Part shown: positions 45,433-64,000 of the stretch, in pieces
Numbering within the stretch: position 1 is the first letter of the stretch
Layout of the letters: each line of letters starts with the position of its first letter
Assembly (NCBI GenBank): GCA_003255025.1
Contig: QANY01012000.1
Location: 806,001-870,000, forward strand
Length of the DNA: 64,000 bases
From: Datisca glomerata
Taxonomy: Eukaryota; Streptophyta; Magnoliopsida; Cucurbitales; Datiscaceae
Reading direction: 5' to 3'
Position numbers and translations under genes: made by a program
The notes under the pieces: model-generated
Database searches by the model: none
What the model saw: the letters and a program-made list of their open reading frames with translations, nothing else
What the model was told of the DNA's origin: nothing

Positions 45433-45445
45433 TGGTATCAAAGCC
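45433..45445 (+). other. Primer binding site, copy A (one mismatch)
   Basis: TGGTATCAAAGCC, matching the initiator Met tRNA type site TGGTATCAGAGCC of copy C except for one base. Confidence 0.85.
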
Positions 45446-45875: not shown

Positions 45876-46440
45876 ATGAGTATATTATCTAGAAGTAGTT
45901 TTTCTAGTAGTATCGGGTCTACAATATCTTCAATATTCGACATAATCAATGAAAAGCATTTTGAATTAGCAGATGATCAAGTAGATCATAAATATTTTGA
46001 ATACCTTCTAATGATGAAGAAGATCATTCTGAATACTTTATAGATAATCAAGTAGATCATGAGGTATGAAATATACCCAAAATCCCTAATAAAAATTTAA
46101 AATCCTCTTCTAGATCATCCATCAATAATGATCAAGATATTAGGATTCGAATGGAGCAAGAATTAAAAAATTTAAAAATTAAAAGTCTATAACCTAAAGG
46201 AATAAGTTCCCAAAGAAGTCTGACAAACCTTAATAATAAATAATATTATAAAATTAATTACCAATCTTTTAATTCTCAAATTAGGGAGTATATCCAGTCT
46301 AGCACCCCTAGGAGTTCCTTTCCTGAATCATCTATTAATAATCAAAATTTTAGGATTCAAGAATTAGAACAAGAATTAAGAAATTTTAAAAATTTGAATC
46401 TAGATACCCTGAACCAAGAATATAAACTAGATTGAGAAGG
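45876..46440 (+). pseudogene. Pararetrovirus ORF2, copy A, broken
   Basis: Begins ATG (45876) three bases after the ORF1 stop and follows the copy C protein (57% or more of visible positions alike by eye), including HFELADDQVDHKYFEY. It has an early frameshift and several stops (e.g. near 46070 and 46190). An acidic, Ser/Asn-rich protein of unknown function. Confidence 0.7.
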
Positions 46441-47560
46441 TCTAACCTAACACACAATGACGACCCAACCAATCTAGATAGACGTAATAGGTTCAGAGAT
46501 TCATATAATATGGATCAAAGAAAAATCATACTTGCTGAATGGAAGGCATCATGCAAAAATACAAATTTGATATGTTTTTTCTTGATTATATCGAGGATAT
46601 TTATGAGAAATATATTAAAGTATTTTCTAAACTTAAATGGGTTAAGGAAGATTCCAGTGTGGTAACTACTAGTCATCCACCACCAGAAAAAATCCTAATT
46701 AATCATAAAAATTTCCAACCTAAAAACGAATTCATTGAACCGTTCCAACTTCATTATGAGAAAACTCTTGATGAAAAAACACTTAAAAACTTCAAAATTT
46801 TAAGAGACAATATCTCAGAATTAGACAGCCATATGATAGAATCTATCTATGAGCCATCCATAATTCATGAAACTTCCTACAATAATATTGAAGAAAATTC
46901 TTAGCCAGAATCCTATGAATTGTAAAATAATATTGAGGAACAATCCATAGATTTAGGAATTAAATCATATGTCAAGGTTATTGACCAAGACACTACCTCT
47001 GAATTAGATAACCATATGATAGAATCTACCTATGAATCTTCCACAATCAATGAAACTTCAAATATTAATAAAATTGAAGAAACATTAAAGAATTTAAAAA
47101 CTAATGACTCAATATATTCTGGTAGGATTGATAACCAAAACAATTGTTCAAAATTTGAAAAACTTGAATTGAACAACAATAGTTCAAATTCAGAAAGCCA
47201 TAGGATATAATCAACCTATGAATCTTTCACAATTGATGAATCTTCAAACGTTAACAAAATTGAAGAAAATTTGAAAATTTTAGAAACAAATAAATCATTC
47301 TCTGTTAAGGACACTAACCATAAATTTTTTTTAATCATTGCTTCTCATTTCAAGATTGTAAAGGAAGAAAAACCTAATAAAAAATTAGTTGAACAACTCA
47401 ATTACACCAATCAACTCAACTACAATAGGTAAATAATTAGACAAAATTGAGAATAAGGTTGATGATCTTCGTAAACCTGAATCTAGTAAAACTCTAGAAG
47501 AAAAACCTTTAATAAATCTTTTAGACAAAACCCCTCTAAACATTGTTCCCCTTAATAAAT
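46441..47560 (+). pseudogene. Coat-region N-terminal part with ~35-residue repeats, copy A
   Basis: A frame at 46539-46904 reads YKFDMFFLDYIEDIYEKYIK, a hydrophobic-charged helix-like block, and then enters low-complexity sequence. From 46815 a module of about 35 residues, of the form YESSTINETSNINKIEE, recurs at 46815-46905, 47001-47105, 47190-47295 and 47605-47710. Several stops interrupt. Copies C and its duplicate lack about 540 bases here, including the 46539 block. Confidence 0.7.
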
Positions 47561-47571
47561 AGATAGATGAA

Positions 47572-48670
47572 ATGCTTCAAGAATTCAAAGCAATCAATCA
47601 AGATTCAAAAAGTCATAGGTCAGAATTCACCTATGATTCATCCACGATAAGTGAATCTTCAAACATTAATAATATCGAAGAATCACTTAGAAATTTAGAA
47701 ATTAATAAATTAGAAAGGAAATGGCCTAAAAGGCCTATTCCACCTGGTATTCAAATTTTTGAAAATTTTTTAGTTAATCAATTTTCTATGTCTATAGAGA
47801 AATTATACAAATGTAATTTTGATCGACTTTCTGAGCAGGAAGTTCTCAATAAATTACAACACATAACAATGGGAGCTAACAACTACATTACCACATATAA
47901 TTTGCCTCACAATGAGGTAATCAATATTTTAGTCACACGATTCATAGGTACACTTCATTCCTGGTGGGAAAAATATCTCACAAAAGAATAAAAAAATACC
48001 ATCATATCAGCAGTGAAGATTGATGCTAAAGGAACCGTAATTATTGGAGAAGATCAGGAAACAAGGCCTCGTACTATTAATACTAATCCTAGGTGTCCAA
48101 CCCTAAGTAATTTCCACTAGTATACAAATATATTTTTATCCAGAATAATGACAAGTGATGATAGTAATCAACCCCTTTTGGAAAAAAAATTCATTAATAA
48201 ATTACCCAATTTGTTTACACACAAAATTAGAACAGTCCTTAGTAATAAACTAGGTAATATAGACTATAATAGTACAATAATACATAAGGAAAGTCTAAAA
48301 ATGTGTATTGACATAAAATCAATAAACAAATTAAAAAGTAAAATAAAATTACAAAATATAAATTAGGTAATTTTTGTGAGCAGTATGGTTTATCCACTAT
48401 TGCTACTTTCCAAAGAAAAGAGAAAAAGTCTCATTTAAGTCCTAGAAGGAATAATAAGCCTCATAGGAGACAATACCACAAAATAAACATAAAAATTTTA
48501 ACCAAGACTTCTCCAAAAATAGAAATTTTGAAAAACGTTTCTCTAAGAATAAAAATGATTCTAGAAGAAAATCTAATAAAAAATTTACCAATAAATTTAA
48601 GTGTTTTAAATATGGCAAGAGTGGTCATTTTACAAATACTTGTCAAGTTAAAAATAAATTTAATCAACTG
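47572..48670 (+). pseudogene. Coat-like protein with CCHC knuckle, copy A
   Basis: Opens with a 139-residue frame ending in RFIGTLHSWWEKYL, a typical gag/coat capsid-helix signature. A second frame (48148-48366) has KFINKLPNLFTHKIRTVL, then a strongly basic segment, then the knuckle at 48602-48643, CFKYGKSGHFTNTC. The second Cys of the knuckle is Tyr, so zinc binding would be lost. The protein would package viral DNA/RNA. A stop near 47990 and frameshifts break the frame. Confidence 0.8.
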
Positions 48671-48697
48671 AAAACCTCTTATGAAAATAAACAAGAA

Positions 48698-49276
48698 TTG
48701 CTTAGAATTATAGAGTCAATAGAATATTATGAGAGTGATAATGATGATTTAGGAGAATTTGAATACCCTGAATCCTCAAAATCTAACTCTTTGAGTTCTG
48801 ACGGTGATTCTCCTAACGTCTATATATGGTGTAGGGATAGTTATTGTCAAGAAGTAAATATTTTAAATGAAGAACAAGAAAATCTCTTATTAGAATTAAT
48901 TAGCAAAATTGAAAATTTAGAATTAAAAGAGGAATATCTGGAAAGACTTAAGAAAGTAATTCAGAAGAAAGAAAATTCTAAGTTTAATAATAATACTACT
49001 ACAAGCCTTTCACAAACGTTAGAAAAATTCAATAGGGTTACGGGAAAAGAAAAGGAAGTTACCTTACAAGAACTTCATAAAGAAATTAAAACAGAAATAA
49101 AAGAAGAATTAAACCTTTTGAAAATAAAGAGTTTAATTAAAAATCAGGAATCTAATGAACTAGGAGAATCTAGTAGATTCTCAATTTCTGATAATGAGGT
49201 TGAAGAACCTATTATCAATAATCAAGATGATGATAATTTCATCCAAATACGTAATCACATCGAAATCAGGAAATGA
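48698..49276 (+). CDS. Acidic coiled-coil region, copy A (open 192 codons)
   Basis: An acidic head (ESDNDDLGEFEYPESS), then a long predicted coiled coil (LLLELISKIENLELKEEYLE and KEVTLQELHKEIKTEIKEEL), then an acidic tail. It lies between the knuckle and the protease in A, B and D, so it is a regular linker of the polyprotein and not a separate gene. In D it is open at 61352-61651. Such coiled coils may mediate particle assembly. That is inference. Confidence 0.7.
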   Translation: MLRIIESIEYYESDNDDLGEFEYPESSKSNSLSSDGDSPNVYIWCRDSYCQEVNILNEEQENLLLELISKIENLELKEEYLERLKKVIQKKENSKFNNNTTTSLSQTLEKFNRVTGKEKEVTLQELHKEIKTEIKEELNLLKIKSLIKNQESNELGESSRFSISDNEVEEPIINNQDDDNFIQIRNHIEIRK

Positions 49277-49289
49277 CACATAATGGTCA

Positions 49290-49720
49290 AAATAATTATT
49301 CAAGATTTTGATTTCACAACAATGACTCTTGTTGATTCAGGAGCATATTTGAATTATATGCAGGAATGACTAGTTCTCCTAAGTACTTCAAGAAGACGAA
49401 AGAATCTTTGTCTTATGTCAGCGATACTCAGATGCATATCAATTATGAAATACTCAAAGTTCAATTTACCATGACAGTGTATCATTTGTCTCAGCAAAAA
49501 ATGACTAATAAAATTATTTTAGGTTTGCCATTCATCTCTTTATTATATCATTTTATAACATAGCGTGATGGGATAATTACTTAACACATGGATAAACCTG
49601 TTATATTCAAATTTCTTTATTTTCCTCACAATGAGAAATTGAAAACTTTAAAACAAAATCTTGTTTTCAAATCCGTCAATTTAATTTCTTGTAAAGAAAA
49701 ATAATTACGGTTTTCACAAG
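49290..49720 (+). pseudogene. Aspartic protease, copy A
   Basis: LVDSGAYLNYM holds the D-S-G catalytic triad (49334-49342). After a frameshift, NKIILGLPFISLLYHFIT matches the C-terminal hydrophobic ILG motif of retropepsins. It would cleave the polyprotein. The stop right after the active site (near 49367) and the shift inactivate it. Confidence 0.8.
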
Positions 49721-49839
49721 GAAAAATAAAATTTAGAAGAATTGAAGAATAACCTCAGAATTCTACTCTTCAAAGTCAAATATTTGAAAAAGAAGATACT
49801 TGTTTAGTAAATTAATTGTAAGCCCCTCAAATAAATTTT

Positions 49840-50440
49840 GAAATGGATAAAATATCCAATACCAAATAAAAGGGACTTAAACAGCAAGTTTAGAGATACT
49901 GTTGTATTCCCTAAGTTTGACACAAAAAGTGGATTTTAGCAAATTCAGATAAATAAGATTGATAAATAAAAAATTATATGTGATCATTAAATTTGCTCCA
50001 AGTAAATTTCAGAATATAATGATTGAATTCTTAATTAACTGCATTCTTAGTAAATAATACCAGTTGAAGTTCTTGATTGTTTACATTAGTAATACTGGAA
50101 ACACTTTAAATTATTTGCCAAAATAATAAAGCAAAATAGTTTAGTTATTTTTGTAAAAAGAATCAAATTATTTCAATCCAAAATTAGATTTTCAGAATAT
50201 GAAATTTATTTCATTATTAAGGCAACTAATCAAATCATACAATTTACCTTATTAAATAAAAAAATTATCTTAATTAATTATGAATCTGCAAAACATTTTT
50301 CGAGAATCTTTCCAAACAAAGTTTTGCTACGTAACAATCTATCTTTAGCAATTTTGATTTTAATATGTAATTTATCCAATGTATTAATAACCTATTACTT
50401 GTAATCGTTTACAGGAAATTATACTATGATTCTGCAATGG
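49840..50440 (+). pseudogene. Reverse transcriptase and RNase H remnants, copy A
   Basis: Heavily eroded, with deletions. Recognisable by comparison with copy B: a palm segment near 49930-50080, YIS-N at the place of the YIDD motif (about 50083), and RNase H near 50270 (NYESAKHF). No frame exceeds about 50 codons. Catalytic residues are lost. Confidence 0.65.
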
Positions 50441-50444
50441 GGTA

Positions 50445-50960
50445 ATTTGACAAACCTGAACTACTAGAATACATAAATGTAGAACCTAGAATACTTAACC
50501 AAAATCCTTTTAAATTCAAGAAGCTTAATGGCAGGACAACTATATTTTGTTCAAAACTCTCATTCATTAATTATGGCCATGGTAGGTTTGAATATCTAAA
50601 AAATAGCTGGATTAATGAATTAAATAGAATTTTAGAAGAAGTTGCATTAAGGCATGATTCTAGTACAACCTTAATTCAATGGTATGAGAAAAATGGAAAA
50701 AATAGGTTTTCACAAGAATAATGAAATCTGTTATGATAACAGAAACATTCAACTGTGAACTTTTTAGGACAAGAAATTTTTAAATTTGAATTCTCAACAA
50801 TCAAAGAATTTTTTGTACTAAAAGGAACTTTCTTTAGATTTCAAAAATGTCATAGGCATGCTGTGAGATCCTTAATAAAATAAATCAATAACACTTTAAG
50901 AAATCATGTGAAGAATGGTTCAATAATAGAAAAGTCATTGACTCAACAATTGGCACTTAA
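50445..50960 (+). pseudogene. AlkB-like dioxygenase domain, copy A, broken
   Basis: Parallel to the better copy in D (62936-63450). Upstream part readable around SWINELNRILEEVALRHDSS and IQWYEK. After a one-base shift comes FHKNNE (50708-50725), where the Asp of HxD is Asn. Then a second shift, TVNFLGQEIFKFEF, and CHRHAVRSL with the distal His region. The final Arg motif is broken by a stop (near 50880). Unable to bind iron as written. See the D copy for function and alternatives. Confidence 0.7.
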
Positions 50961-52037
50961 AACCAAAATCAAATATGAGTCTTCTACTCCTAACCAAGCC
51001 CAATCAACAATTTTGGTTTATCATACTCGATTACCAATTAACTCTAGTCAAACAATTTGGTCCTTTTTCAAATACTTAATCTTTTAAAACACTTGACCAA
51101 CCAATTTATCATAATCAATTTCATATTAAGCCTTCATTTGCTCATCTGAAGGATCCATCACAAATTGCTAAAGCCCAATTTCATTCCCAAATTCCATTAC
51201 GTCCCTAGGCACAATAACAAAAATCTCAGTTTCTACAAAGAAAGTTCGGAAAGAATCCTTTACAATTCTTTTTTATCCTCAAGATCATAACTATAAAGGT
51301 TTAGAAAATCCATCCTTCAAGTTTCAAAATACTTTTAAATAAAAACAATAATTATTTTAACTATATTGATGCATGGCACGAGAATTTCTTTCAGCAAGGT
51401 ACTGACTTTTCTCACTTCTGGTTTTTAAATTTTGATAACAATTTCAAAATTGATTTTCCAAATCGATTCTCAAAATGGTGGTTCAGTCATGGTCTTACCT
51501 TAGAACTTTTTCTAATTGATTTACAATAATGTTTCAATTTATTTTTAAAGGTTTACAAGCCCTCGCCAATTGAGGCCTCATTTCCCCAAATAATTTGGTT
51601 TTCAAACAAATACAAAATACTTTGAATTTTGAAATGGAAATACTTGGTTAAAAATGGAGTCCTCACCAAAGATTAATATGTCAAGTGGTGGGATAAATTG
51701 AATACCTAGAAAATTATTGCATCCATTAATTATTTTACGAGTGTTCATCCCAATATGAGACTAGCAAATCTTTTTACCCAAGCTCCATTAAAAAGTTAAT
51801 GAGCCAATTAACCTAGTTCCACAAATAAACTTATCAAATTTGAATTCCTCCAAACCCAAATCAAAACCTGAGTCCGAAACCTCTTTAAAGGGTAAATCAA
51901 AGGCCATCAAGCCTAAATCCATATTGGAGAAAGAATTAATCCAAGAAATGTTTCTCCTCTTGGAGAACAACGATGAATCTGACTCTAAACTATTCATAGA
52001 GTCAAGTTATCAATCATCCAGAAAATTTAATCCTTAG
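50961..52037 (+). pseudogene. 3' region of the polyprotein, copy A
   Basis: Pieces align with B (52736-53900) and D (63480-64000): FHIKPSFAHLKDPSQIAKAQ, FSHFWFLNFDNNFKIDFPNR, and YVKWWDKLNT. The last open piece (51840-52037) ends close to KDPFNNINLND, matching the end of the B frame. The WWDK-containing region is of unknown function. It may correspond to the last caulimovirid ORF. Stops throughout. Confidence 0.65.
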
Positions 52038-52139
52038 TAATTGAAGGACCCATTCAATAATATCAATCTCAATGATAATAAGCAAATTCAGATCAATCAG
52101 TAAATGAATAGAAGAACTTGTCCTTGGAAAAATGCCAAT

Positions 52140-52602
52140 GCTTGAATAATCAAAATCAGACAATCAAGTAACTTTGAAGATGTATCATAATGACATCTCA
52201 GCACAATACCACGATCATAATGATCTTCAATGGATTCTCCACATTCAAGGAATCCAATGCACATCAATAAGTCACAATGACATTTTCAAACAACAATCAA
52301 CATTCAAGACACAACATCTAAGATAGCAATTATCAAAGAATGACAATAATGACACTCTCCATTATACAACAAACAAGTCACAATGACTTTTCATCACAAC
52401 AATTTGTAATTTATAGTTTTCTATAATTATTGTACTAGTTGTCAAAGAATTAGGCAATTATTCATGTTTTTTATTATTCTTAGTCAAAAGTAGGCAAAAG
52501 TAGAAATGTAAAATATTTTTACTTTTGTAGAATAGAATAGTTCATGTAAGTGATGAGTTCCATGTGAACTCCACTTTCCTCGGATATAAATAGGTAGCCC
52601 TC
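52140..52602 (+). promoter_or_regulatory. Pararetrovirus promoter, copy A
   Basis: Follows the last coding remnant. Contains repeated AATGAC elements (CACAATGAC at about 52271 and 52380) and then a good TATA box TATAAATA (52585-52592). This matches the place of the pregenomic RNA promoter in caulimovirids. The copy ends within about 20 bases of the TATA box, near the expected transcription start. Confidence 0.7.
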
Positions 52603-52715
52603 TCCCATTTATTCCTTAGAGGGCTACTTATTTTTAGCCAAGGAAAGTGGAGTTCACTGGAAACTCATCACTTACCTGAACTATTCTATTCTACAAAAGT
52701 AAAAACATTTTACAT
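52509..52715. repeat. Inverted repeat joining copies A and B tail to tail
   Basis: Left arm 52509-52602 and right arm 52618-52715 are reverse complements with few differences. The spacer is 15 bases. Both arms are the TATA-proximal promoter, so transcription from either would run into the other copy. The TATA box is intact on the left and changed to TAAAAATA-like on the right. Confidence 0.9.
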
Positions 52716-52735
52716 CAAAGGTGGATTATTTTCTT

Positions 52736-53900
52736 CTATTCGTCATCACTGAGGTTCATATTATCGAACGGGTCTTTTGAATCCTGGAATGGATCATAGG
52801 CCCACTGTGGAAGAACGTGAACGTGTGATCTTTCCTTCAATTGTTGAGAAGGAGCTTTGGACGCTTGTTCTTTATTATTTTTTATTGGATGATTCGACTC
52901 TACTGATGATCCAGAGTCAGAATCAGTATTATAATCTAGAAGAAGAAGCATTTTTTATATTAACTCCTACTTTGTTTTAGATTTAGCAGCCTTTGCCTTT
53001 TCTTTTGGAGAAGTTTTGATTTAGGCTCGGTTTCTTTGGAAGAATTGGATGATTTGGACTGGCTTATTTGTGGGATATGGTTATCTTGCTCCTTAATATT
53101 TAATGGAGCCCTTGGAGGTGGTTTGATTGACTTCAATTGTGGGTGGATTTTTGCAAATTCATCATTGATGGCGGTAAAGATTTTCAGAGTACTAAATTTG
53201 TCCCACCATTTAATATAGTATTGTCTAGTGAGAATTTCCTCTTCGATTAAATACTGCCACTTAAGGATCCATGGAATTTTATATTTATTTAGGAAATAAA
53301 TGATTGGTGGAAAAGAATCCTCAATTGTTGATGGTTTGAATAATTTTAAGAACAAATTGAAATTATGTTGAAGTTCAATAGGGAATATTTCCAGGACGGG
53401 CCATGGATAGACCTCCATCTTAAAAACCATGAAAGATGGATTTTTCATTTCTCCAAAGTTATTATTTTGAGGATGTAGAATGAATGATAGAGGATTTTTC
53501 CTTCTGCATTGTTTATTGGTTTGATATTTATTGATTTTGTTTTTAAGAGAATATCTATATAGAAACTGAGGTTTTTGTCCTTGTGACCAAGGATAAAATG
53601 GTAATCAGGAAGGAAATGAGCTTTTTCTATTCCAATCGGGTTTTTTAAGTGAGCATATGAGGGCTTGACATAAAAGAGATTTTTACTGGGGGTCTTTCTG
53701 AAATATGGAGATGACCTATTGTAATTAGTAATTGGCTAGTTAGATGACCAATTGTGGGTCAAAAGATTTGAAAACTATAAATGGGTCAAATTGGTTGACC
53801 AATGTTGTTTGGTAGTTGGGCCTGATGGACTTGAGTATTGTCATCTGGGTATTTCTTGGAGCAGAAGGCTCCTATTTGATTTGGACCCTAAGGGCCACTT
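52736..53900 (-). pseudogene. 3' region of the polyprotein, copy B
   Basis: Two open pieces, 52960-53448 (162 codons, with ELQHNFNLFLKLFKPSTIED and QYYIKWWDKF) and 52736-52951 (71 codons, acidic, ending NMNLSDDE at 52739). Upstream, AHLKNPIGIEKAHFLPDYHF and KDKNLSFYIDIL are readable. The 450-base enhancer seen in A is missing, so the ORF end lies only about 20 bases from the promoter arm. Function unknown. Confidence 0.7.
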
Positions 53901-53939
53901 GTGGAGTCGAAAAGCCAGGATTTGAATAATTAATGCATT

Positions 53940-54175
53940 TAATAAACTCAATATCAAAATAAAAAATACAAAGAATAGATTATCATTAAGAAAAAATTTG
54001 TTTGGAAGCTATATCTTTAACATCATTTTCTAAAACATATTTTGCAGATTTACAATCAGTTTTTAAAAGGAACTTTTGATTTAATAAGTCATCCTGAAAT
54101 TTATGTATGCATAGAACAACTGATAAGATTTCTTTTTTAATTGTACTATAATTGACTTGAGATTAGGTCTAAGTT
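53940..54175 (-). pseudogene. RNase H, copy B
   Basis: Reads STIKKEILSVVLCIHKFQDD with the conserved Glu, then LLKTDCKSAKYVLENDV with the conserved Asp, the typical caulimovirid RNase H pattern. It continues directly into the 3' region without the AlkB domain. A stop follows QIFS near 54000. Confidence 0.75.
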
Positions 54176-54191
54176 TCATATATGAACCTAA

Positions 54192-55320
54192 CTATTTGTT
54201 CAGATAATTCTGGAGAGACTTTTTGTAATAGGATACCTCCATATCCAAGCTCACAGGCATCAATTTGGACAATTTTGAAAGAAATATTAGCAGGGATGCC
54301 AAGAGAAGAAAGTGACTTAACATGTGCCTTATTCTTTTGATTAAATTAATATGGACAATAGTCCATGGAGATGGATTCTTTTTAAGCCTATCAAATAGAG
54401 GCTTACAGTCAATTCTTAATTTATTGTAAAAGTTAGATATGTCATTTAAAGATTCAAGAAATCTTTGCAACAATATTTTATCTAGGATTTCATTGGGGAA
54501 TTTGTCAGTAAATTGTATTACCCTATCAATTGGCTTGATTATAGAATGGTGTATTTCAAATCCTAGGAATCTAACCATAGATTGAAATAATCTAATTTTA
54601 CTTGTAGAGATAACTAAACTATTTTATTTTATTATCCTAGCAAATGATTCAAGATGTCTCCAATGTTATTCTATTGATTTAGAGAAAATGAGCACATTAT
54701 CAATGTAAACAATTGATAAATCAGTAAATTTATTAAATATCTCATTTATTATATTTTAAAATTCACTGGGAGCATTTTTAAGACCAAATTGTATTACATT
54801 CCATTCGTAATAGCCAAATGAAGTTACAAATCCAGATTACACATCAAACTTAGAGAATAATACTGCATCTCTAAGCCTATTGATTAAGTCCTTTTTGTTT
54901 GGCATTGGATATCTTATCTATTCCAGAACATTATTAAGAGGCTTATAATTGATTACTAAACGAGAAACTCTTCATTCAATTTCATTGACCTTTTGGACGT
55001 AAAAGGCCGAGCAGGACCAAGATGACTTGCTCCTTCTAATGATATTATTATTGAAAAGTTCTGTAATTTCTTTTTTACAGAACTCAAGCATCTCAAAATT
55101 CATCTGAATTGGCCTTGCCTTTGTTGGGATATTCTTCTCATCAAATCCCTTAATATAAGGCAGACTGGACAATATGTTGCTTCATGTGCCAGAAAGCATT
55201 AGGGATATTAGAACATAATTCTTTACAGATTTTTTAGTTAAATTTTTTAATTTTGTTTTCAAGAGCAGGACTTTAGATATGTTCTTCAATTATTTTAAAT
55301 TTTAATTCATCCTGTAAAAA
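54192..55320 (-). pseudogene. Reverse transcriptase, copy B (best preserved in the cluster)
   Basis: Open pieces 54972-55172 (IKGFDEKNIPTKARPIQMNF, CKKEITELFNNNIIRRSKSS) and 54192-54578 (FLGFEIHHSIIKPIDRVIQF, RFLESLNDISNFYNKLRIDC). Between them the palm motif reads YIDN (54696-54707), so the second catalytic Asp is Asn. These are caulimovirid RT and connection sequences. The enzyme would copy pregenomic RNA to DNA. Several stops break the frame. Confidence 0.85.
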
Positions 55321-55322
55321 AA

Positions 55323-55760
55323 TTATTTTTCTTTACAAGAAATGAGATTTATGGAATTAGAAATATATTTTTCTTTCAAAGTCTTCAATTTTTCATTATG
55401 AGTAAAAGAAAGGAATTTGAATTTTATAGGTTTATTCATGACATAGGTAATTATTCCAACATACTTTGTTGAATACAGATATAGCAGAGTAATAAATGAT
55501 AAACCTAAAATAATTTTGTAAGTCATAATTTTTACTGGGACAAATGATGTTTTAAAATAAACATTGTCCTGGCAAATATGGATTGTGGGTATTTTATAAT
55601 TGATATGCATTCGAGTACCATTTGCAGAAGATAAATATTCTTTCATCTTTTTGAAGTACTTGACAGGAACAAGTCATTCCTACATACAATTCAAGTCTGC
55701 AACTGAATCAACAAGAGCCATTATCGTGGAATCAAAATCTTGAATAATTATTCTCACCAT
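55323..55760 (-). pseudogene. Aspartic protease, copy B
   Basis: The minus strand reads ALVDSVADLNCM, with Val replacing the Gly of D-S-G (codons at 55701-55709). A 107-codon frame (55323-55646) then has YKIILGLSFITLLY, the C-terminal ILG motif, and a Lys-rich linker. Inactive by the active-site change and a stop after the site. Confidence 0.8.
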
Positions 55761-55869
55761 TATGCGCCATTTTTTTTATTTTGATGTGATTAAGTATCTG
55801 GATAATGTTATCATCATCTTGATTGTTAATAATAGGTTCTTCAAATTAGTAATTTACTAGGTCCAGTAG

Positions 55870-56200
55870 ATTCTTGTTTATTAATTAAATTTTTTTAAAA
55901 AGATTTAATTCTTCTTTTATTCCCGTGTTTGTATTTTTTAATTATTTTATTTCAATTTTAATATTTTTAATTTCTTTCTCAATTTCCTGTAAGGTAACTT
56001 CCTTTTCTTTTTCCTTATTGAATTTTTCAAGGGTTTGCGAAAGACTTGCAATTTTGTTACTATTAGACTTAGTATTTTCTTTCTTTAGAATTACTTCTCT
56101 AAGTCTCTCCAGGTAATTCTACTTTAATTTTGGTTTTTTAATTTTGCTAATTAAGTCTAACAAGAGGTTTTCTTGTTCTTCATTTTTATTTAAGGCATTT
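55870..56200 (-). pseudogene. Coiled-coil linker, copy B, broken
   Basis: Minus strand shows the same KKENTKSN, LSQTLEKFN and KEVTLQEIEKE-like phrases as copies A and D, with stops. At its upstream end it is joined to leader sequence (56255-56290), so the coat region has been deleted from B. Confidence 0.7.
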
Positions 56201-56299
56201 ATTTTTTTACAACAACTCTCCCTCATCCCTATAGTGATGTTGGGAGAATTGAGCAACAACAATAACAAGATGCGGAATCAAGTATAATTCAAGGTAAAT

Positions 56300-56560
56300 T
56301 TTAAGATATATTATGGTGAGAACTTGTTTTCAACTCTTAAACTATTTGAGAGAAAAACTGGTTTTTGAGAACAAAGCTTTCTTCCTCCCTCTTCCGTAAA
56401 TCTTTCTTCTCATTGTTTTCTTCAATTAATCGTTGCCAATAATTACTATTTGTGTAAGTTTTTAATCTCACACTTTAAGATGCCTTAATGCATCTTAATA
56501 CCCCCTCTCTAATTGCTTTAAATTATACTTGATTCCGTGCCTTTTGGTATCAGAGCCAAA
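56300..56560 (+). promoter_or_regulatory. Leader and primer site, copy C
   Basis: Non-coding leader of copy C, head to head with the end of B (a leader piece in reverse at 56269-56289). The primer site is TGGTATCAGAGCC (56545-56557), perfect for plant initiator Met tRNA and preceded by one TATACTTGATTCCG unit. Confidence 0.8.
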
Positions 56561-56689
56561 CCTGGTGAGGATAATTACTGTTTCTACTTCAATTTCTACA
56601 TAATTAAACTGTTCACAGTCTATTATGGCTGGTTGTTGTTATTATTGTTGCTTAATTGCTTACATGAATAATTTCTTTTACATAATCTC

Positions 56690-56991
56690 ACTCTCCGCCC
56701 AAGTGGCTAGTTATCCTTACAATTCAATATATCTCTGTATTATTTGTTTACCTAATATGTGAATCTATTTTATCAGAGCCCGACGTATCAGCTTCTATTT
56801 GGTTAGCTTCAGATACCTCAGTAAGACCACTTAGAGACGTAAATCCTAAGGGTAGGGTGGTTGTAGGGGTAGGTTGGAAAAGAGCGACCCTAAGAGGAGG
56901 TTGTAGAAGTCACCACCCCAGATTAGTAATCAAAATACAATATGAAATTTTTAATCATAAGAAAAATTTAGTTATTTTGAGCAATGAGTAG
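56690..56991 (+). CDS. Pararetrovirus ORF1, copy C (no ATG seen)
   Basis: The frame is open for about 100 codons and shares its core with copy A (IWLASDTSVRPLRDVNPKGR). It ends TAG at 56989-56991, overlapping the ORF2 ATG by eight bases (ATGAGTAG). No ATG opens it. TCTATTTTATCAG just before the conserved core resembles a splice acceptor. Its function is not recognised. The duplicate is at 58452-58753. Confidence 0.5.
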
Positions 56992-57493
56992 ATTATCTAG
57001 AAGTAGTTATTCTAACAGCATTGGGTCTACAATGTCTTCAATATACGGTATAATAAATGAAGAACATTTTAAATTAGCAGATGATCAAGTAAATCATAAA
57101 TATTTTGAATACCTTCCAGAAAATCAAGAAGATCATTCCGAATGCTTTCCAGATGATCAAGTAGATCATAAGGTATGGAATATACCCAAATTTTCTAATA
57201 AAAATATAAACTTTAAATCCACTTCTATATCATCCCTTAATAATGATCAAGATATTAGGATTCGAATAGAGCAAAAATTAAAAAATTTAAACATTAAAAG
57301 TCTAGAACCTAAAGGAATAAGTTCCCAAGAAAGTCAGACAAACCTTAATAACAAACAATCTAATAAAATTAATTATCAATATCTTAATACTCAAATTAGG
57401 GAGTATAGCCAATCTAGTACCTCTAGGAGTTCCTTTCCTGAACCATCTATTAATAATCAAAATTTTAGGACTAAAAAATTAGAACAAGAATGA
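56984..57493 (+). CDS. Pararetrovirus ORF2, copy C
   Basis: 169 codons, intact, starting MSRLSRSSYSNSIGSTMSSI. Acidic N-terminal half (DDQVDHK occurs with variations three times: DDQVNHKYFEY, NQEDHSECF, DDQVDHKVW), then a Ser/Asn/Gln-rich half. No known domain. Compared with copy A the stop at 57491 comes from one substitution, so the ancestral frame probably ran on toward the coat region. Confidence 0.6.
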   Translation: MSRLSRSSYSNSIGSTMSSIYGIINEEHFKLADDQVNHKYFEYLPENQEDHSECFPDDQVDHKVWNIPKFSNKNINFKSTSISSLNNDQDIRIRIEQKLKNLNIKSLEPKGISSQESQTNLNNKQSNKINYQYLNTQIREYSQSSTSRSSFPEPSINNQNFRTKKLEQE

Positions 57494-57681
57494 AGAAATT
57501 CAAAAAAATTAAGCCTAGAGATTTAGAAATTAAATCATCTGTTAAGGTTATTGACCAAGACATTAGCTCTGAATTAGATAACCATAGGTTAGAATCTTCC
57601 TATGAATCTTCCACAATCAATGAACCTCCAAATATTAATAAAATTGAAGAAATATTAAAGAAATTAGAAACTAATGAATAA
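57490..57681 (+). pseudogene. Coat-region N-terminal fragment, copy C
   Basis: 63 open codons with one copy of the ~35-residue repeat (SYESSTINEPPNINKIEE). It is joined after IKPRDLEIK to sequence that in copy A lies about 540 bases further on, so C has an internal deletion here. Confidence 0.6.
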
Positions 57682-58427
57682 TCATATTCAGCTAGGATTG
57701 TTAACCAAGACAATCATTTAGAGTTTGAAATTAAACTTGAAAAAATCTTAATTAATCATAAAAATTCTTTAATCACTACTTATTCTTTTAAAATTTAAAA
57801 GGAAGAAAAACCTAATAAAGAAGTAGTTGAACAACTTAGTTACACAAATCAAAATCCAACTACAATAAGTAAGAAATCAGATAAAATTGAGAATAAGGTT
57901 GATGATCTTCATAAACCTGAATCTAGTGAAACTTTGGAATAAAAACCTTTAATAAATCTTTTAGACAAAACCACTCTAAATATTGTTCTCCTTAATAAAC
58001 AGATTGATGAAATACTTTAGGAATTAAAAGTAATCAATCAAGATAATAATTCAGATTCAGAAAGCTATATGTCAGAGTCCACTTATGAGTCGTCTACAAT
58101 AAGTGAATCTTCAAACATTAATAATATTGGAGAATCACTTAGAAATTTAGATATTAATAAATTAAAAAAAAATGGGCTAAAAAGCCCATTCCTCCTGATG
58201 TTCAAATTTCTAAAAATTCTTTAGGTAATCAATTTTTTGTGTCTGCAGAGAAATTATGCGAATGGAATATTGAATGACTTTCTGAGCAGGAAGTTCTCAA
58301 CAAATTGCAGCATATGATGATGGTAGCTAACAACTACATCACCGCACAGTTTGCCTCTCAATGATGTAAACAATCTTTTAGTCACAGGATTCACATGAGT
58401 ACTTCATTTCTGGTGGGAAAGATATCT
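57682..58427 (+). pseudogene. Coat-region remnant, copy C
   Basis: Continuation with stops. Contains another repeat (TYESSTISESSNINNIGE) and the start of the coat core (near 58190-58420), cut off at the duplication junction inside the HSWWE-like part (TSFLVGKIS frame). Confidence 0.65.
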
Positions 58428-58745
58428 GAATAATTTCTTTTACATAATCTCACTCTCCGCCCAAGTGGCTAGTTATCCTTACAATTCAATATATCTCTGT
58501 ATTATTTGTTTACCTAATATGTGAATCTATTTTATCAGAGCCCGACGTATCAGCTTCTATTTGGTTAGCTTCAGATACCTCAGTAAGACCACTTAGAGAC
58601 GTAAATCCTAAGGGTAGGGTGGTTGTAGGGGTAGGTTGGAAAAGAGCGACCCTAAGAGGAGGTTGTAGAAGTCACCACCCCAGATTAGTAATCAAAATAC
58701 AATATGAAATTTTTAATCATAAGAAAAATTTAGTTATTTTGAGCA

Positions 58746-59255
58746 ATGAGTAGATTATCTAGAAGTAGTTATTCTAACAGCATTGGGTCTACAATGTCTT
58801 CAATATACGGCATAATAAATGAAGAACATTTTAAATTAGCAGATGATCAAGTAAATCATAAATATTTTGAATACCTTCCAGAAAATCAAGAAGATCATTC
58901 CGAATGCTTTCCAGATGATCAAGTAGATCATAAGGTATGGAATATACCCAAATTTTCTAATAAAAATATAAACTTTAAATCCACTTCTATATCATCCCTT
59001 AATAATGATCAAGATATTAGGATTCGAATAGAGCAAAAATTAAAAAATTTAAACATTAAAAGTCTAGAACCTAAAGGAATAAGTTCCCAAGAAAGTCAGA
59101 CAAACCTTAATAACAAACAATCTAATAAAATTAATTATCAATCTCTTAATACTCAAATTAGGGAGTATAGCCAATCTAGTACCTCTAGGAGTTCCTTTCC
59201 TGAACCATCTATTAATAATCAAAATTTTAGGACTAAAAAATTAGAACAAGAATGA
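58746..59255 (+). CDS. Pararetrovirus ORF2, tandem duplicate
   Basis: Same 169-codon frame as 56984-57493 with a single residue difference (Ser for Tyr in NYQYLNTQ). Presence of an intact duplicate reflects the recent segment duplication, not selection. Confidence 0.6.
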   Translation: MSRLSRSSYSNSIGSTMSSIYGIINEEHFKLADDQVNHKYFEYLPENQEDHSECFPDDQVDHKVWNIPKFSNKNINFKSTSISSLNNDQDIRIRIEQKLKNLNIKSLEPKGISSQESQTNLNNKQSNKINYQSLNTQIREYSQSSTSRSSFPEPSINNQNFRTKKLEQE

Positions 59256-60158
59256 AGAAATTCAAAAAAATTAAGCCTAGAGATTTAGAAATTAAATCAT
59301 CTGTTAAGGTTATTGACCAAGACATTAGCTCTGAATTAGATAACCATAGGTTAGAATCTTCCTATGAATCTTCCACAATCAATGAACCTCCAAATATTAA
59401 TAAAATTGAAGAAATATTAAAGAAATTAGAAACTAATGAATAATCATATTCAGCTAGGATTGTTAACCAAGACAATCTTAATTAATCATAAAAATTCTTT
59501 AATCACTACTTATCCTTTTAAAATTTAAAAGGAAGAAAAACATAATAAAGAAGTAGTTGAACAACTTAGTTACACAAATCAAAATCCAACTACAATAAGT
59601 AAGCAATCAGATAAAATTGAGAATAAGGTTGATGATCTTCATAAACCTGAATCTAGTGAAACTTTGGAATAAAAATATTTAATTAATCTTTTAGACAAAA
59701 CCACTCTAAATATTGTTCTCCTTAATAAACAGATTGATGAAATACTTTAGGAATTAAAAGTAATCAATCAAGATAATAATTCAGATTCAGAAAGCTATAT
59801 GTCAGAGTCCACCTATGAGTCGTCTACAATAAGTGAATCTTCAAACATTAATAATATTGGAGAATCACTTAGAAATTTAGATATTAATAAATTAAAAATA
59901 AAATGGGCTAAAAAGCCCATTCCTCCTGATGTTCAAATTTTTAAAAATTCTTTAGGTAATCAATTTTTTGTGTCTGCAGAGAAATTATGCGAATGGAATA
60001 TTGAATGACTTTCTGAGCAGGAAGTTCTCAACAAATTGCAGCATATGATGATGGTATCTAACAACTACATCACCACACAGTTTGCCTCTCAATGATGTAA
60101 ACAATCTTTTAGTCACAGGATTCACATGAGTACTTCATTTCTGGTGGGAAAGATATCT
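59252..60158 (+). pseudogene. Coat-region remnant, tandem duplicate
   Basis: Open pieces 59252-59443 (identical to 57490-57681) and 59799-60008 (KWAKKPIPPDVQIFKNSLGN), the latter longer than in the first copy because of a one-base difference near 59897. Ends at the same junction as the first unit. Confidence 0.65.
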
Positions 60159-60295
60159 GAATAATTTCTTTTACATAATCTCACTCTCCGCCCAAGTGGC
60201 TAGTTATCCTTACAATTCAATATATCTCTGTATTATTTGTTTACCTAATATGTGAATCTATTTTATCAGAGCCCGACGTATCAGCTTCTATTTGN
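60159..60295 (+). other. Third start of the duplicated unit and N
   Basis: 60159-60294 repeats the first 136 bases of the unit and stops at N (60295), which may be a scaffold join. Sequence then resumes with AATGACTTTCTGAGCAGG, already present at 60004. Confidence 0.85.
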
Positions 60296-61170
60296 AATGA
60301 CTTTCTGAGCAGGAAGTTCTCAACAAATTGCAGCATATGATGATGGTAGCTAACAACTACATCACCACACAGTTTGCCTCTCAATGATGTAAACAATCTT
60401 TTAGTCACAGGATTCACATGAGTACTTCATTTCTGGTGGGAAAGATATCTCATAAAAGAATCCAAAACACCATCCTTTCAGCAGTGAAAATCGATGCTGA
60501 AAGAACCCCAATTATTGAAAAAGATCAAGAAACAATGTCTGATACTATTAATACACTTCTCTACACAATAATTAAACACTTCATCGAAACACCAAGTTAT
60601 ATTACTTTGTGTATCCATGATCAAATCAGTAATCTTAGGTGTCCAACACTAAGTGATTTCTACTGGTATAAAAATATATTTTTATCTAGAGTAATGACAA
60701 GGGATGATAGTAATCAACCCCTTTGAAAAGATAAATTCATTAATAAATTACCTAATCTGTTCACACACAAAATTAGAACAGTCCTTAATAATAACCTAGG
60801 CAATATAGACTATAATAGTCTCATGTGCAGTACAATAATACATAAGAAAGGTCTAGAAATGTGTATTGACATAAAAATCAATAAACAAATTAAAAAAGAA
60901 ACTGCAAAATATGAGTTAAACAATTTCTGTTAGCAATATGGTTTACCAATTACTGCACATTCCCAGAAAATTAGAAAAAATTCCCATTTAAGTCCTAGAA
61001 GGAATCATAAGCCTCATAGGAGACAATACTATAAAAATAAGCATAAAAGTTTCAACCAATACTTCTATAAAAATATAGATTTTGACAAACGTTTCTCTAA
61101 GAATAAAAATTATTCTAGAAGAAATTTCAATAAAAAATTTATTAATCAATTAAAAATCTCTGATGAAGAT
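60296..61170 (+). pseudogene. Coat-like protein, copy D (knuckle deleted)
   Basis: Open at 60418-60726 (102 codons: LRCPTLSDFYWYKNIFLSRV). After a stop, KFINKLPNLFTHKIRTVL, MCIDIK and a strongly basic stretch near 61010-61130 are readable. At 61141 the sequence jumps from the basic stretch to LKISDEDKQ, so the CCHC knuckle present in A has been removed by a deletion of about 75-80 bases. Confidence 0.75.
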
Positions 61171-61351
61171 AAACAATCTCTGGTCAGAATAGTATGAGAG
61201 TGATAGTGATGATTTAGGATAATTTGAATACCCTGAATTCTTAGAATCTAACTTTTCGAGTTCTGACAGTGATTCTCCTAACATCTCTATAGGGTGTAGG
61301 GCTAGTTGTTGTCAAAAAATAAATGTTTTAAATGAAGAACAAGAAAATCTC

Positions 61352-61651
61352 TTGTTAGATCTAATAATCAAAATTGAAAATCAGGAATTAAGACAGGAAT
61401 ATCTGGAAAGACTTAGAAAAATAATTCTAAAAAAAGAAAATACTAAGTCTAATAATAACAATACTACAAGGCTTTCGCAAACACTTAAAAAATTCAGTAA
61501 GATTAAAGAAAAGGAAAAAGAAGTGACCTTACAGGAACTTCAGAAAGAAATTAAAAATATTAAAACAGAAATAAAAGAAGAATTAAACTTTTTGAAAATA
61601 GAGAGTTTAATTAAGAATCAGGAATCTAATGAACTAGGAGAACCTAGTTGA
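61352..61651 (+). CDS. Coiled-coil linker, copy D (open 99 codons)
   Basis: IKIENQELRQEYLERLRKII and KEVTLQELQKEIKNIKTEIK give a clear heptad pattern, homologous to 48890-49170 in A. It ends in a TGA (61649-61651) where A reads through. Part of the polyprotein, not an independent gene. Confidence 0.65.
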   Translation: MLDLIIKIENQELRQEYLERLRKIILKKENTKSNNNNTTRLSQTLKKFSKIKEKEKEVTLQELQKEIKNIKTEIKEELNFLKIESLIKNQESNELGEPS

Positions 61652-61759
61652 TTCCCAATTTCTGATAATAAGGTTGAAGAACATATTATCAACAATCAAT
61701 ATGATGCTAACTTCATCCAAATAATTTATCACATCAAAATCAAGAAATGACATATAATA

Positions 61760-62278
61760 TTCAGAATAATTATTCAAGATTTTAATTTTACGACAATGGC
61801 CCTTGTTGATTCAGGAGCAGATTTGAATTGTATGTAGAAAAGACTAATTCCAACCAAGTACTTCAAGAAGATAAAAGAATATTTGTCTTATACTAATAGT
61901 ACTCGTATGCATATCAATTATGAAATACTGAAAGTTCATATTTGCTAAAACAATGTATGTTTTAAAACATCGCTTATCTTAGTAAAAAATATGATTTACA
62001 AAATTGTTTTAGGTTTACCATTCATTTCTCTGTTGTATCCTTTTACCACAGAGTATGATGGGATAATTAATTATCCCTTGGATGAACCTGTAAAATTCAA
62101 TTTTCTTTGTTTCTTTCATAATGAGAAATTGAAGACTTTGAAACAAAATTCTCTTTTCAAGTCCATAAACTCAATTTCTTGTAAGAGAAAACAATTATAT
62201 TTTCTGCAAGACAAAATTGAAGAACACGCTTTTCAAATAAAGTTAAAATTATTGAACGAGGAGTTCCTTGTTTACTAA
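61760..62278 (+). pseudogene. Aspartic protease, copy D
   Basis: LVDSGADLNCM carries an intact D-S-G (61808-61816), but the next codon is a stop (TAG at 61834). After this the C-terminal part is open (61991-62278) with YKIVLGLPFISLLYPF and a Lys-rich linker. Best preserved active site of the three copies. Confidence 0.8.
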
Positions 62279-62289
62279 TTAATTTTAAT

Positions 62290-62932
62290 CCCCTTAAAGA
62301 TATTTTGGAATGGATAAAATATTCAATATCAAACAGAAGAGATTTAATCAAGAGACTTAAAATGCTGATGTATCCTCTAAGATTAGCATAAAATATAAAT
62401 GTTGGCAAATCCAGATAAATAATACTGAGAAATATAAGATTATATATGATCATTATAAATGGAAAATAATGTCATTTGATCTTAGATTTCCTCCAAGTAA
62501 GTTTCAGAATATAATGATTAAACTCTTAATCAATTTTTGATTTTCCAATTGATTGCATTAATAATATTCTTATTAGACAATACTGGTTGCATCATTGATT
62601 GTTTTCATTAACCATATGTTAAAAAATACTAGAAATATTTTAAATTATTTGTCAAGATAATAAAACAAAATAATTTAATTATCTCTACAAAATTTAAGAA
62701 TAGATTTCTACAATTTGAAATTTATTATTTCATTATTAAAATAATTGATCAAATCATACAATTTGTTTTGATTAATAAATATACAAAATATGTTTTGAAA
62801 TTAATTCCAAACAAAGTTTTGCCAGGTAGTAACCCATTCTTAGCTATTCTGAATTCAATATTTAATTTATCTAATATATTAATGATTAAATGTTTGACTC
62901 CCTTACTTGTAATATTTTGTAGGGATTCATTC
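62290..62932 (+). pseudogene. RT and RNase H remnants, copy D
   Basis: Recognisable by alignment with A and B: a palm region near 62440-62520, a VFIN at the place of the YIDD motif (about 62597), and RNase H near 62770-62830 (YTKYVLKL). Large deletions and stops. Ends at a TTTTGTAG (AG at 62921-62922) before the AlkB frame. Confidence 0.65.
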
Positions 62933-62935
62933 TAA

Positions 62936-63283
62936 GATTTTTCAATTGAGAAATTTGACCTCCTAGAATATGGAAAGATAGAGCCTAGAGTACTTAATCA
63001 AAATTCTTTCAAAATCAAGAAGCTTATTGGCACAGCAGCCGCCTTTTGTTCAAAATCCCCATTCATTGATTATGGTCATAATGGATTTAAATATTCAAGA
63101 AATGGATGGATTAATGAATTGGATAAAAGTTTAGAAGATGTTGGGTTGAAGCATGACTTCAATGCAGCATTAATTCAATGGTACGAAAAATGTGAAAATA
63201 TAGGTTTTCACAAGGATAATGAAATCTGTTATGATGACAGCAAAAATTTTAACTGTGAACTTATTAGGACAAGCAATTTTTAA
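62936..63283 (+). pseudogene. AlkB-like domain, upstream frame with HxD, copy D
   Basis: 115 open codons. The last third reads NGWINELDKSLEDVGLKHDF, LIQWYEKCENIGFHKDNEIC. IGFHKDNE is the iron-binding H-x-D (His 63209-63211, Asp 63215-63217) in the context Y-E-x-G/N-IGFH-x-D typical of AlkB domains in plant RNA viruses. AlkB proteins are Fe(II)/2-oxoglutarate dioxygenases that remove alkyl groups from nucleic acid bases. The second half of the fold is in the next frame (63219-63629), so one indel near 63235-63250 breaks the domain. It could instead be a host ALKBH capture, but the motif style is viral. Confidence 0.75.
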
Positions 63284-63629
63284 AATTAAATTTTCAGACA
63301 AAATAATAAAAGAATTTATGATGCTGGAAGGAACTTTCTTCGTCATGTCTGATGGATTTCAAAAAGGTCATAGGCATGCTGTAGAATCCTTAACCAGAAG
63401 AATCAACATCACTTTTAGAAAACATGTGAAAATGATGAGTGGTTCAATAATAGAAGAGACTTTGACTCAACAATTGGCCCTTAAGGCCCAAATCAATTAT
63501 AAGTCTTCTACTGCAGATCAAGCTCAATCAACAATGCTTGGGTCCATCAGATCCAATCACCAATCAACCATAATAAACCAATTTGATCCATTCTCAATAT
63601 CATTTGATACCCAATCACTTTCAAAATAA
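63219..63629 (+). pseudogene. AlkB-like domain, downstream frame with distal His and Arg motif, copy D
   Basis: 136 open codons. ILTVNLLGQAIFKI is the strand after HxD, then LEGTFFVMSDGFQKGHRHAV with the distal iron ligand (His51 or His53, 63369-63377), then RINITFR (residues 61-67), which fits the R-x-N-x-T-x-R motif of AlkB that holds 2-oxoglutarate and substrate. The ATG at 63219 is internal to the domain and probably not a true start. After residue 80 the frame runs into a Gln/Ser-rich linker shared with copies A and B (NQFDPF). Confidence 0.78.
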
Positions 63630-64000
63630 AATAAACCATCATTTAATTTTCAAAAAATGGCCAGCAAAAATCTCTTTCATATTAAGCCTCAATTCGTTCA
63701 TTTGAAAGATCCTGCTCAAATTGCCAAAGCCTATTTCATCCCCAAATTTCATTATGTTCCTGGACATAATAACAAAAATCTTAGTTTCTACAGAGACATT
63801 CTCCTAGGAACAGAATCCATAAAAATTAGTCCAATCAGAAATTCTGAAGAAAGAATCATTTACCATTCTTTCTCTATCCTCAGGATCATAACTATGGAGG
63901 AATAAAAAATCCATCCTTCAAGTTTCAAAGTACTTTTGAATAAAAAAAATAACACAATTATTTTGACTATATTGATGCATGTCACAAGATTTTCTTGCAT
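63630..64000 (+). pseudogene. 3' region of the polyprotein, copy D, cut by the window end
   Basis: Open at 63657-63905 (82 codons, HIKPQFVHLKDPAQIAKAYF, then NKNLSFYRDILLG). Homologous to about 51110-51340 in A and 53500-53680 in B. A stop at 63903 is followed by further similarity to copy A. The WWDK part would lie beyond the window. Confidence 0.7.

What the first reader, a model, noticed from the sequence alone, without database searches (positions are those of the whole stretch)
62936..63450. AlkB-like dioxygenase domain in an endogenous pararetrovirus (copy D)
Two adjacent frames together show every landmark of an AlkB fold in order: IGFHKDNE (H-x-D), ILTVNLLG, GFQKGHRHAV (distal His) and RINITFR (R-x-N-x-T-x-R). 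It is embedded between RNase H and a conserved 3' region, and the same arrangement is present in copy A. AlkB domains are established in several plant RNA virus families (for example Alpha- and Betaflexiviridae). I know of no description as a regular caulimovirid domain. A DNA-phase virus with an RNA/DNA demethylase would suggest defence against host base methylation, or capture from an RNA virus or host.
Basis: partly seen in the sequence, partly recalled or inferred. Interest (0 to 1): 0.88.

Follow-up and report, generated by a model that had tools for sequence, protein, structure and literature searches.

The report
AlkB enzyme in fossil plant virus
A plant genome carries many relics of a virus form that lost its copying enzyme but kept an AlkB-type enzyme, one that in other organisms removes methyl marks from RNA or DNA, beside sister relics that kept the copying enzyme and lack AlkB.

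Summary
The frames at 62936-63283 and 63204-63629 are halves of one frame-broken AlkB domain; an open copy elsewhere in the same 678-Mb genome passes the Pfam AlkB cut-off. The domain is viral: each of 60 AlkB loci inspected has caulimovirid neighbours, and at least 150 copies exist.

In this sample AlkB is not a regular domain of the whole virus. It marks a second element type in which reverse transcriptase and the front of RNase H have collapsed to a short remnant: 0 of 60 AlkB loci have the full set of RT pieces, 0 of 30 RT loci have AlkB. One AlkB-type locus shares 94-96% of 2.8 kb of movement/coat sequence with two RT-type loci. AlkB sits in front of the ORF2-like protein and shows constraint (dN/dS 0.34).

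I read it as an RT-deficient partner component, of the kind described for bipartite florendoviruses and non-autonomous pararetroviruses, with an added nucleic-acid demethylase. Activity and trans-replication are inferred. My paper searches found no AlkB in a caulimovirid.

The parts
62936..63283 (+). AlkB domain, N-terminal half with HxD (frame 1 of the broken gene, copy D)
   Evidence: open frame; PF13532 E 3.2e-4; at least 150 homologous places in own genome
63204..63629 (+). AlkB domain, C-terminal half (about 63249-63443, distal His and RxxxxxR), running on into the first part of the ORF2-like protein (tail1)
   Evidence: open frame; PF03171 E 4.5e-4; in L015 and L002 both halves lie in one frame
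63630..63905 (+). ORF2-like region, second part (tail2)
   Evidence: 57% identical to the minus copy's tail at 53720-53448; found in relatives
62633..62935 (+). shortened RT/RNase H remnant directly before AlkB
   Evidence: tblastn to the RT thumb of the minus copy
61736..62215 (+). aspartic protease region, copy D
   Evidence: 77% identical to the L015 protease piece (L001 301-780); the L015 frame matches PF00077 E 2.7e-6
60580..60924 (+). caulimovirid coat-protein domain region, copy D
   Evidence: 74% identical to the L091 stretch around the PF22909 match
56545..56556 (+). 12-base match to the caulimovirid tRNA-Met primer-binding site, 5' start of copy D
   Evidence: exact match; four places in the window at up to 1 mismatch, 0.17 expected, two of them (8603 minus, 20789 plus) not at these copies; site letters also printed in PMC13308828
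50449..51015 (+). AlkB domain and start of tail, copy A (frame-broken)
   Evidence: 59-64% identical to copy D over the longer stretches
45433..45444 (+). primer-binding-site match, 5' start of copy A (1 mismatch)
48082..48348 (+). coat-protein domain region, copy A (zinc knuckle at 48578-48664)
53900..55120 (-). RT and RNase H of the third, AlkB-less (type I) copy
52960..53907 (-). ORF2-like tail (tail1, tail2, tail3) of the AlkB-less copy, directly after RNase H

Best explanation
Copies A and D are dead members of a large family of endogenous caulimovirids that comes in two forms. Type I has movement protein, coat, protease, RT with its YIDD motif, RNase H and a separate ORF2. Type II has coat and protease (and, in the one young copy whose 5' half was read, movement protein), only a short RT/RNase H remnant, and an AlkB Fe(II)/2-oxoglutarate dioxygenase joined to the front of ORF2. 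Type II could not copy itself; most likely it was an RT-deficient viral component replicated by type I in mixed infection and kept compatible by exchange of the 5' half. Its AlkB-ORF2 product most likely demethylated viral nucleic acid: the long pregenomic RNA or its single-stranded cDNA (m1A/m3C, or m6A). That would protect it from methylation damage or from host readers of methyl marks, and could serve both components. SHOWN here: the domain, its place, the loss of RT, the two types, shared 5' sequence in one case, and constraint on AlkB. INFERRED: trans-replication, enzymatic activity, substrate and benefit.
For: AlkB identity. Viral context in 60 of 60 loci by reading; protease in 52 and tail1 in 58 of 60. 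RT loss: median 691 bp from protease to AlkB (n=47), RT0 piece on the same strand in 0 of 60, all five RT pieces in 0 of 60; in contrast 27 of 30 RT loci have all five pieces and none has AlkB (E 0.01; lists at E 0.05). Type I: movement protein PF01107, coat domain PF22909, CCHC in L091, RT-RNase H frame with YIDD followed by overlapping ORF2 in L031. Shared 5' half: L091 (I) vs L093 (II) 96.0% over 2845 nt, L092 (I) vs L093 94.1%, against 93.7% between the two type I copies; protease side 86-89%; RT stretch 65-70% in short pieces. Constraint: dN/dS 0.34 (bootstrap 0.26-0.46) against 0.58 and 0.75 in the two wrong frames; singleton variants spread evenly over codon positions (67/75/77), variants shared by 3 or more copies favour position 3 (37/26/56), p=0.04. 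In this window a type I copy lies between two type II copies, like the compound insertions that PMC4241990 uses as evidence for coexisting components (passages).
Against: Catalytic columns are no more conserved than the rest: modal share 0.88-0.97 against a mean of 0.90; only 21 of 32 open copies keep all five residues. Of the 13 changed cells 10 show a state seen once in its column, as expected of decay after insertion, but R to K at the last Arg occurs three times, and catalysis itself is not singled out. The RT remnant also shows dN/dS 0.32 in 5 open copies, so it may encode something I do not recognise. tail1 is weakly constrained (0.67; above 1 for close pairs). The protease segment could not be tested (0 copies spanned it). 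40 of the 60 loci were chosen mostly for open frames, and the 30 RT loci are the best matches to one query. At the laxer E 0.05 one AlkB locus (L076) has a weak RT0 match, and L084 has RT0-RT2 pieces in reversed order, read as a neighbouring copy. The 5' comparison rests on 2 type I and 1 type II loci. The intergenic region was not compared. No expression, activity or second species was seen.
Confidence: 0.62

Rival explanations
1. AlkB was part of the ancestral complete virus; type I later lost AlkB and type II later lost RT. The split is decay or segregation of one genome.
For: Both types share the same order around the site and related ORF2 tails. The RT remnant shows that type II descends from an RT-bearing form.
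Against: No element with both was seen among 60 AlkB and 30 RT loci; in type I L031, ORF2 starts right after RNase H, overlapping it, with no AlkB match.
Confidence: 0.2
2. Type II is a pure hitchhiker (satellite-like deletion form) and AlkB serves only itself or nothing; the partnership is commensal, not a bipartite virus.
For: Type I loci L091/L092 carry movement protein, coat and zinc knuckle and, in their 3' parts L031/L046, protease, RT, RNase H and ORF2, so type I does not seem to need type II. PMC5491270 describes such a commensal pair (passages).
Against: Constraint on AlkB says that its product mattered during spread.
Confidence: 0.35
3. The segment is a host ALKBH gene or RNA-virus insertion near a viral relic, not part of the virus.
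For: One of the three viral copies in the window lacks it.
Against: Each of the 60 loci inspected has viral flanks; domain and ORF2-like tail share one frame in open copies.
Confidence: 0.02
4. The domain is kept as a nucleic-acid-binding or structural piece and not as an enzyme.
For: Catalytic residues no better conserved than average; 11 of 32 open copies have lost at least one of five.
Against: Modal residues are the canonical HxD...H...RxxxxxR, and 10 of 13 changed cells are states seen once.
Confidence: 0.12

Closest known systems
Component B of putative bipartite florendoviruses (Geering et al. 2014, PMC4241990; passages read)
   Same: MP-CP-AP kept, RT and N-terminal RNase H missing, C-terminal extension homologous to the partner's ORF2; compound insertions with the other component; shared 5' sequence.
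   Different: An AlkB domain lies between the remnant and ORF2; the passages read name no such domain, and the paper is not among those holding the word AlkB. The partner seen here carries coat and movement protein, whereas component A in Vitis is truncated there.
Non-autonomous pararetroviruses eRTBVL2 / ePVCVL of grasses (Chen et al. 2017, PMC5491270; passages read)
   Same: RT/RNase H absent, MP-CP-PR kept, an extra domain in its place, partner virus with very similar shared sequence.
   Different: Their extra domain (SFKTE) had no recognisable RT relative by HHpred and is called functionally unknown; here it is AlkB.
AlkB domains of plant RNA viruses (Bratlie and Drablos 2005, PMC544882; J Virol review PMC11784248; passages read)
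   Same: HxD, H, RxxxxxR set in a viral polyprotein of a plant virus.
   Different: Those passages concern positive-strand RNA viruses; this is a reverse-transcribing DNA virus, with AlkB joined to ORF2.
ALKBH5-like ORF of Phalaenopsis Ty3/Gypsy elements (PMC9289625; abstract, outline and passages)
   Same: A plant reverse-transcribing element with an AlkB-type domain; demethylase shown there in vitro.
   Different: That one is nested within Arabidopsis AlkBH5 homologues, in an LTR element found with RT as marker. Here the only relatives the database search returned (29-33% identical) are AlkB proteins whose own PDB matches are ALKBH2 and ALKBH3, and the element lacks RT.

Membership tests
AlkB / 2OG-FeII_Oxy_2 | HxD and distal His (iron ligands) | tested here: met
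   H 31/32, D 28/32, distal H 30/32 open copies
AlkB / 2OG-FeII_Oxy_2 | RxxxxxR | tested here: met
   R 30/32 and R 28/32; definition from PMC544882
AlkB / 2OG-FeII_Oxy_2 | Pfam PF13532 above curated cut-off | tested here: met
   L015 36.3 bits against 31.2; not reached by L016 (27.2 bits) or by the broken window halves
AlkB / 2OG-FeII_Oxy_2 | 2OG-dependent demethylase activity | not testable with these tools
   needs an in vitro assay
Caulimoviridae (endogenous) | viral movement protein | tested here: inconclusive
   PF01107 E 1.1e-17 in type II L093 and 1.4e-8 in type I L091; no match in the window, copies A and D included
Caulimoviridae (endogenous) | caulimovirid coat domain with zinc knuckle | tested here: met
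   PF22909 E 6.4e-12 and PF00098 E 6.3e-5 in L091; homologous stretches in the window, zinc knuckle found in copy A only
Caulimoviridae (endogenous) | AP-RT-RNase H order | tested here: met
   type I loci; in type II only AP and a remnant
Caulimoviridae (endogenous) | tRNA-Met primer-binding site | tested here: met
   56545 exact, 45433 with 1 mismatch; the same 12 bases also occur at 8603 and, with 1 mismatch, 20789, so the site is not specific
Florendovirus component B | RT and N-terminal RNase H missing | tested here: met
   0 of 60 loci with RT0 on the same strand or with all RT pieces
Florendovirus component B | C-terminal extension homologous to partner ORF2 | tested here: met
   tail1/2/3 shared by both types; relation to florendovirus ORF2 itself not tested
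Florendovirus component B | partner with complementary gaps (truncated CP/MP) | tested here: not met
   type I L091/L092 carry movement protein and coat; so I do not file it as a florendovirus component B
Florendovirus component B | near-identical intergenic region | not tested
   only the movement/coat half was compared
Florendovirus component B | placement in the florendovirus RT clade | not tested
   no reference RT set in the tools

The most novel reading that the evidence does not exclude
A two-component pararetrovirus in which one component gave up its polymerase and carries a nucleic-acid demethylase for both: a division of labour between copying and erasing methyl marks in a reverse-transcribing DNA virus.
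Probability: 0.35. Interest if true: 0.87.

Novelty: new variant of a known kind. Interest (0 to 1): 0.74.

Why it matters
RT-deficient caulimovirid components are known, but in the papers read their extra domains had no recognised function. Here the extra domain is a recognisable enzyme, so the question of what such a component contributes becomes testable. It would extend viral AlkB from plant RNA viruses to plant reverse-transcribing DNA viruses, and point to methyl marks on pregenomic RNA or cDNA as something these viruses had to deal with. It also suggests how it could be overlooked: surveys that use RT as marker skip RT-less forms (CAULIFINDER reports reduced detection of component B, PMC9719215; PMC9289625 also used RT as its marker).

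Tried and rejected
IMG/VR scans with each half and with the 15-copy alignment gave no relative. The protein database gave nothing for the first half, six AlkB proteins at 29-33% identity for the 15-copy alignment, and nothing at E 0.01 in the search among longer proteins; so presence in other plants is undetermined. PDB searches with the halves and with the profile gave no match at E up to 10. A host gene or chance insertion was rejected on flanks. A Ty3 capture like the orchid case was rejected on domain order. A tree with plant ALKBH and RNA-virus AlkB could not be built: the family search did not complete and no reference set is held. Structure prediction was not run: the window halves are broken apart, and loci from the genome search are not on that tool's list of allowed input. 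Rfam on 30000-40000 gave nothing.

Full report
WHAT IS THERE. The window is bases 806001-870000 of contig C1161 of a 678-Mb genome in 1358 contigs; its content (caulimovirid relics; frames that I recognise from memory as Ty1-copia and a receptor-like kinase) is that of a plant. Scanned apart, the first frame matches PF13532 (E 3.2e-4) and the second PF03171 (E 4.5e-4), both below the curated cut-off.

THREE COPIES IN THE WINDOW. tblastn with pieces of copy D shows copy A (plus, primer-site match at 45433, AlkB 50449-51015), copy D (plus, primer-site match at 56545, running off the window; L001 carries its tail beyond the end) and a minus-strand copy (about 56250-52960). The minus copy has RT and RNase H and goes directly into the ORF2-like tail without AlkB. 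Primer-site matches: four places in the window at up to 1 mismatch, 0.17 expected; two of the four (8603 minus, 20789 plus) lie outside these copies, so the site alone is not specific.

A HIGH-COPY FAMILY. The AlkB N-half has 150 scored matches in the genome, all at E 3.2e-41 or better, out of 2624 first-look candidates, so 150 is a lower bound. I examined 60: the 20 best (L001-L020) and 40 chosen mostly for open frames (L051-L090). 32 of 60 have an uninterrupted AlkB domain by my cut (at least 75 residues before and 78 after the WYE-like motif; 4 of the 28 others had no motif match and were not judged further); this share is biased by the choice, and one of the 32 (L017) changes frame near its end. 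In open copies both halves are in one frame with tail1 (L015, L016, L002). L015 passes the PF13532 cut-off (35.7 bits over 225 aa; 36.3 over 166 aa); L016 does not (27.2 bits) but passes PF03171. All 15 members of A2 match PF13532 at E 0.01 or better. The HxD, H and RxxxxxR residues are the modal ones.

TWO TYPES. With the RT thumb of the minus copy I fetched the 30 best RT loci (L021-L050, from 150 scored, 3943 candidates). On one criterion (tblastn E 0.01, same strand): AlkB loci, n=60: protease 52, tail1 58, RT0 0, all five RT palm pieces 0, protease-to-AlkB distance median 691 bp (n=47, 542-1081). RT loci, n=30: protease 28, all five RT pieces 27, RNase H first piece 30, tail1 29, AlkB 0 (none on either strand at E 0.05); RNase H to tail1 median 71 bp (n=24). 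At E 0.05 L076 has a weak RT0 match and L084 has RT0-RT2 pieces in reversed order upstream, read as a neighbouring copy. In type I (L031) RT carries YIDD, the RNase H frame ends and ORF2 starts in an overlapping frame. In type II a methionine stands a few residues after the RNase H-like end, and AlkB then runs into the tail; so the domain is an N-terminal addition to ORF2, made either from its own start or as the end of a polyprotein. Which of the two is not shown.

SAME VIRUS. Upstream pieces (L091, L092 type I; L093 type II) carry movement protein (PF01107 in L091 and L093; L092 by tblastn), coat domain PF22909 and zinc knuckle (L091; the other two by tblastn). The type II piece is 96.0% and 94.1% identical to the two type I pieces over 2.8 kb, and these two are 93.7% identical to each other. 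Downstream the protease side is 86-89% identical between types and the RT stretch 65-70% in short pieces, while compared copies of the young lineage within a type stay 95% identical (L031/L046; L066/L062; L015/L062) and an older type II copy (L002) is 79% identical to L015. Hence the 5' half was shared or exchanged recently. This rests on three loci. Window copies A and D belong to an older type II lineage (71-85% to L093 in matching stretches) and show no movement-protein match. Mean AlkB identity is 0.835 within the window-like group (6 copies), 0.934 within the other (26) and 0.817 between them.

CONSTRAINT. Pairwise NG86 dN/dS over 32 open copies is 0.34 (bootstrap over codons, 120 sampled pairs, 0.26-0.46); read in the two wrong frames the same alignment gives 0.58 and 0.75. 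In one search (31 copies) distant pairs give 0.26 and closer classes 0.38-0.41. Singleton variants are even over codon positions (67/75/77), variants shared by 3 or more copies are not (37/26/56; p=0.04). This is what neutral decay after insertion on top of constrained spread predicts. Results that do not help: catalytic columns are not above the mean in conservation (0.88-0.97 against 0.90) and 11 of 32 copies lack at least one of five residues; the RT remnant has dN/dS 0.32 in 5 open copies, and tail1 0.67 in 19. NG86 here has no transition/transversion correction.

WHAT KIND OF AlkB. In the protein database the 15-copy profile finds six proteins (E 2e-8 to 6e-4), all with PF13532; a profile of four of them matches 16 PDB sequences at E 0.01, all ALKBH2 or ALKBH3. 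This weakly favours an ALKBH2/3-like type (m1A/m3C repair, recalled knowledge) over the m6A type, but origin and substrate are open.

LITERATURE. Ten full-text searches in open-licence PMC papers; several listings were capped (15 of 11,059, 20 of 37, 15 of 129, 8 of 121, 6 of 663). One search is complete: 8 papers hold both 'AlkB' and 'Caulimoviridae', and I looked at AlkB passages of all 8 (PMC9289625, 12 of the 13 places found for five terms; the other seven); none of these passages describes AlkB in a caulimovirid. Subscription papers and preprints are not covered. Other passages read: PMC4241990 (component B lacks RT and N-terminal RNase H; ORF2 protein without known homologue), PMC5491270 (non-autonomous pararetroviruses, SFKTE domain), PMC9719215 (component B hard to detect), PMC13308828 and PMC10377300 (no 'oxygenase' or 'demethyl' in the main text), PMC544882, PMC11784248. 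The other three papers were seen as listing only.

VERDICT. A real AlkB domain, in a real caulimovirid family, seen only in an RT-deficient element type. New variant of a known kind. The demethylase function and the partnership are the best reading, not shown.

Noticed in passing
window 56665-60189: The 5' part of copy D is present twice in tandem, 1762 bases apart at first and 1730 further in (98-100% identical where one of the two is the reference), a recent duplication or concatemer junction.
   Followed up: no
window 45433-51300 and 56545-64000: Copies A and D have no movement-protein match, unlike the young type II copy L093; their lineage may have lost MP as well as RT (two copies only).
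   Followed up: partly
window 51300-56550: A type I (RT-plus, AlkB-less) copy lies between two type II copies, about 250-300 bp head to head from copy D: a compound cluster.
   Followed up: partly
L062:908-1600 and equivalents: The RT/RNase H remnant is an open frame with dN/dS 0.32 in 5 copies although the RT core is gone; it may encode something of its own.
   Followed up: partly
L050:1-3285: Two RT-bearing copies lie head to head within 3.3 kb.
   Followed up: no
L008 / L012 (C293:6153696-6159009): Two AlkB units 2 kb apart share the same flank pattern, a local duplication.
   Followed up: no
window 31700-39000: A GC-rich block (up to 0.475 against about 0.28) with frames that look like gag of another retroelement (label recalled, not searched); no Rfam match.
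   Followed up: partly
window 2485-2913 and 40655-41495, minus: Fragments that look like Ty1-copia polyprotein (label recalled, not searched).
   Followed up: no
window 20464-22750, plus: Exons of a receptor-like cytoplasmic kinase, the likely host gene in the window (label recalled, not searched).
   Followed up: no
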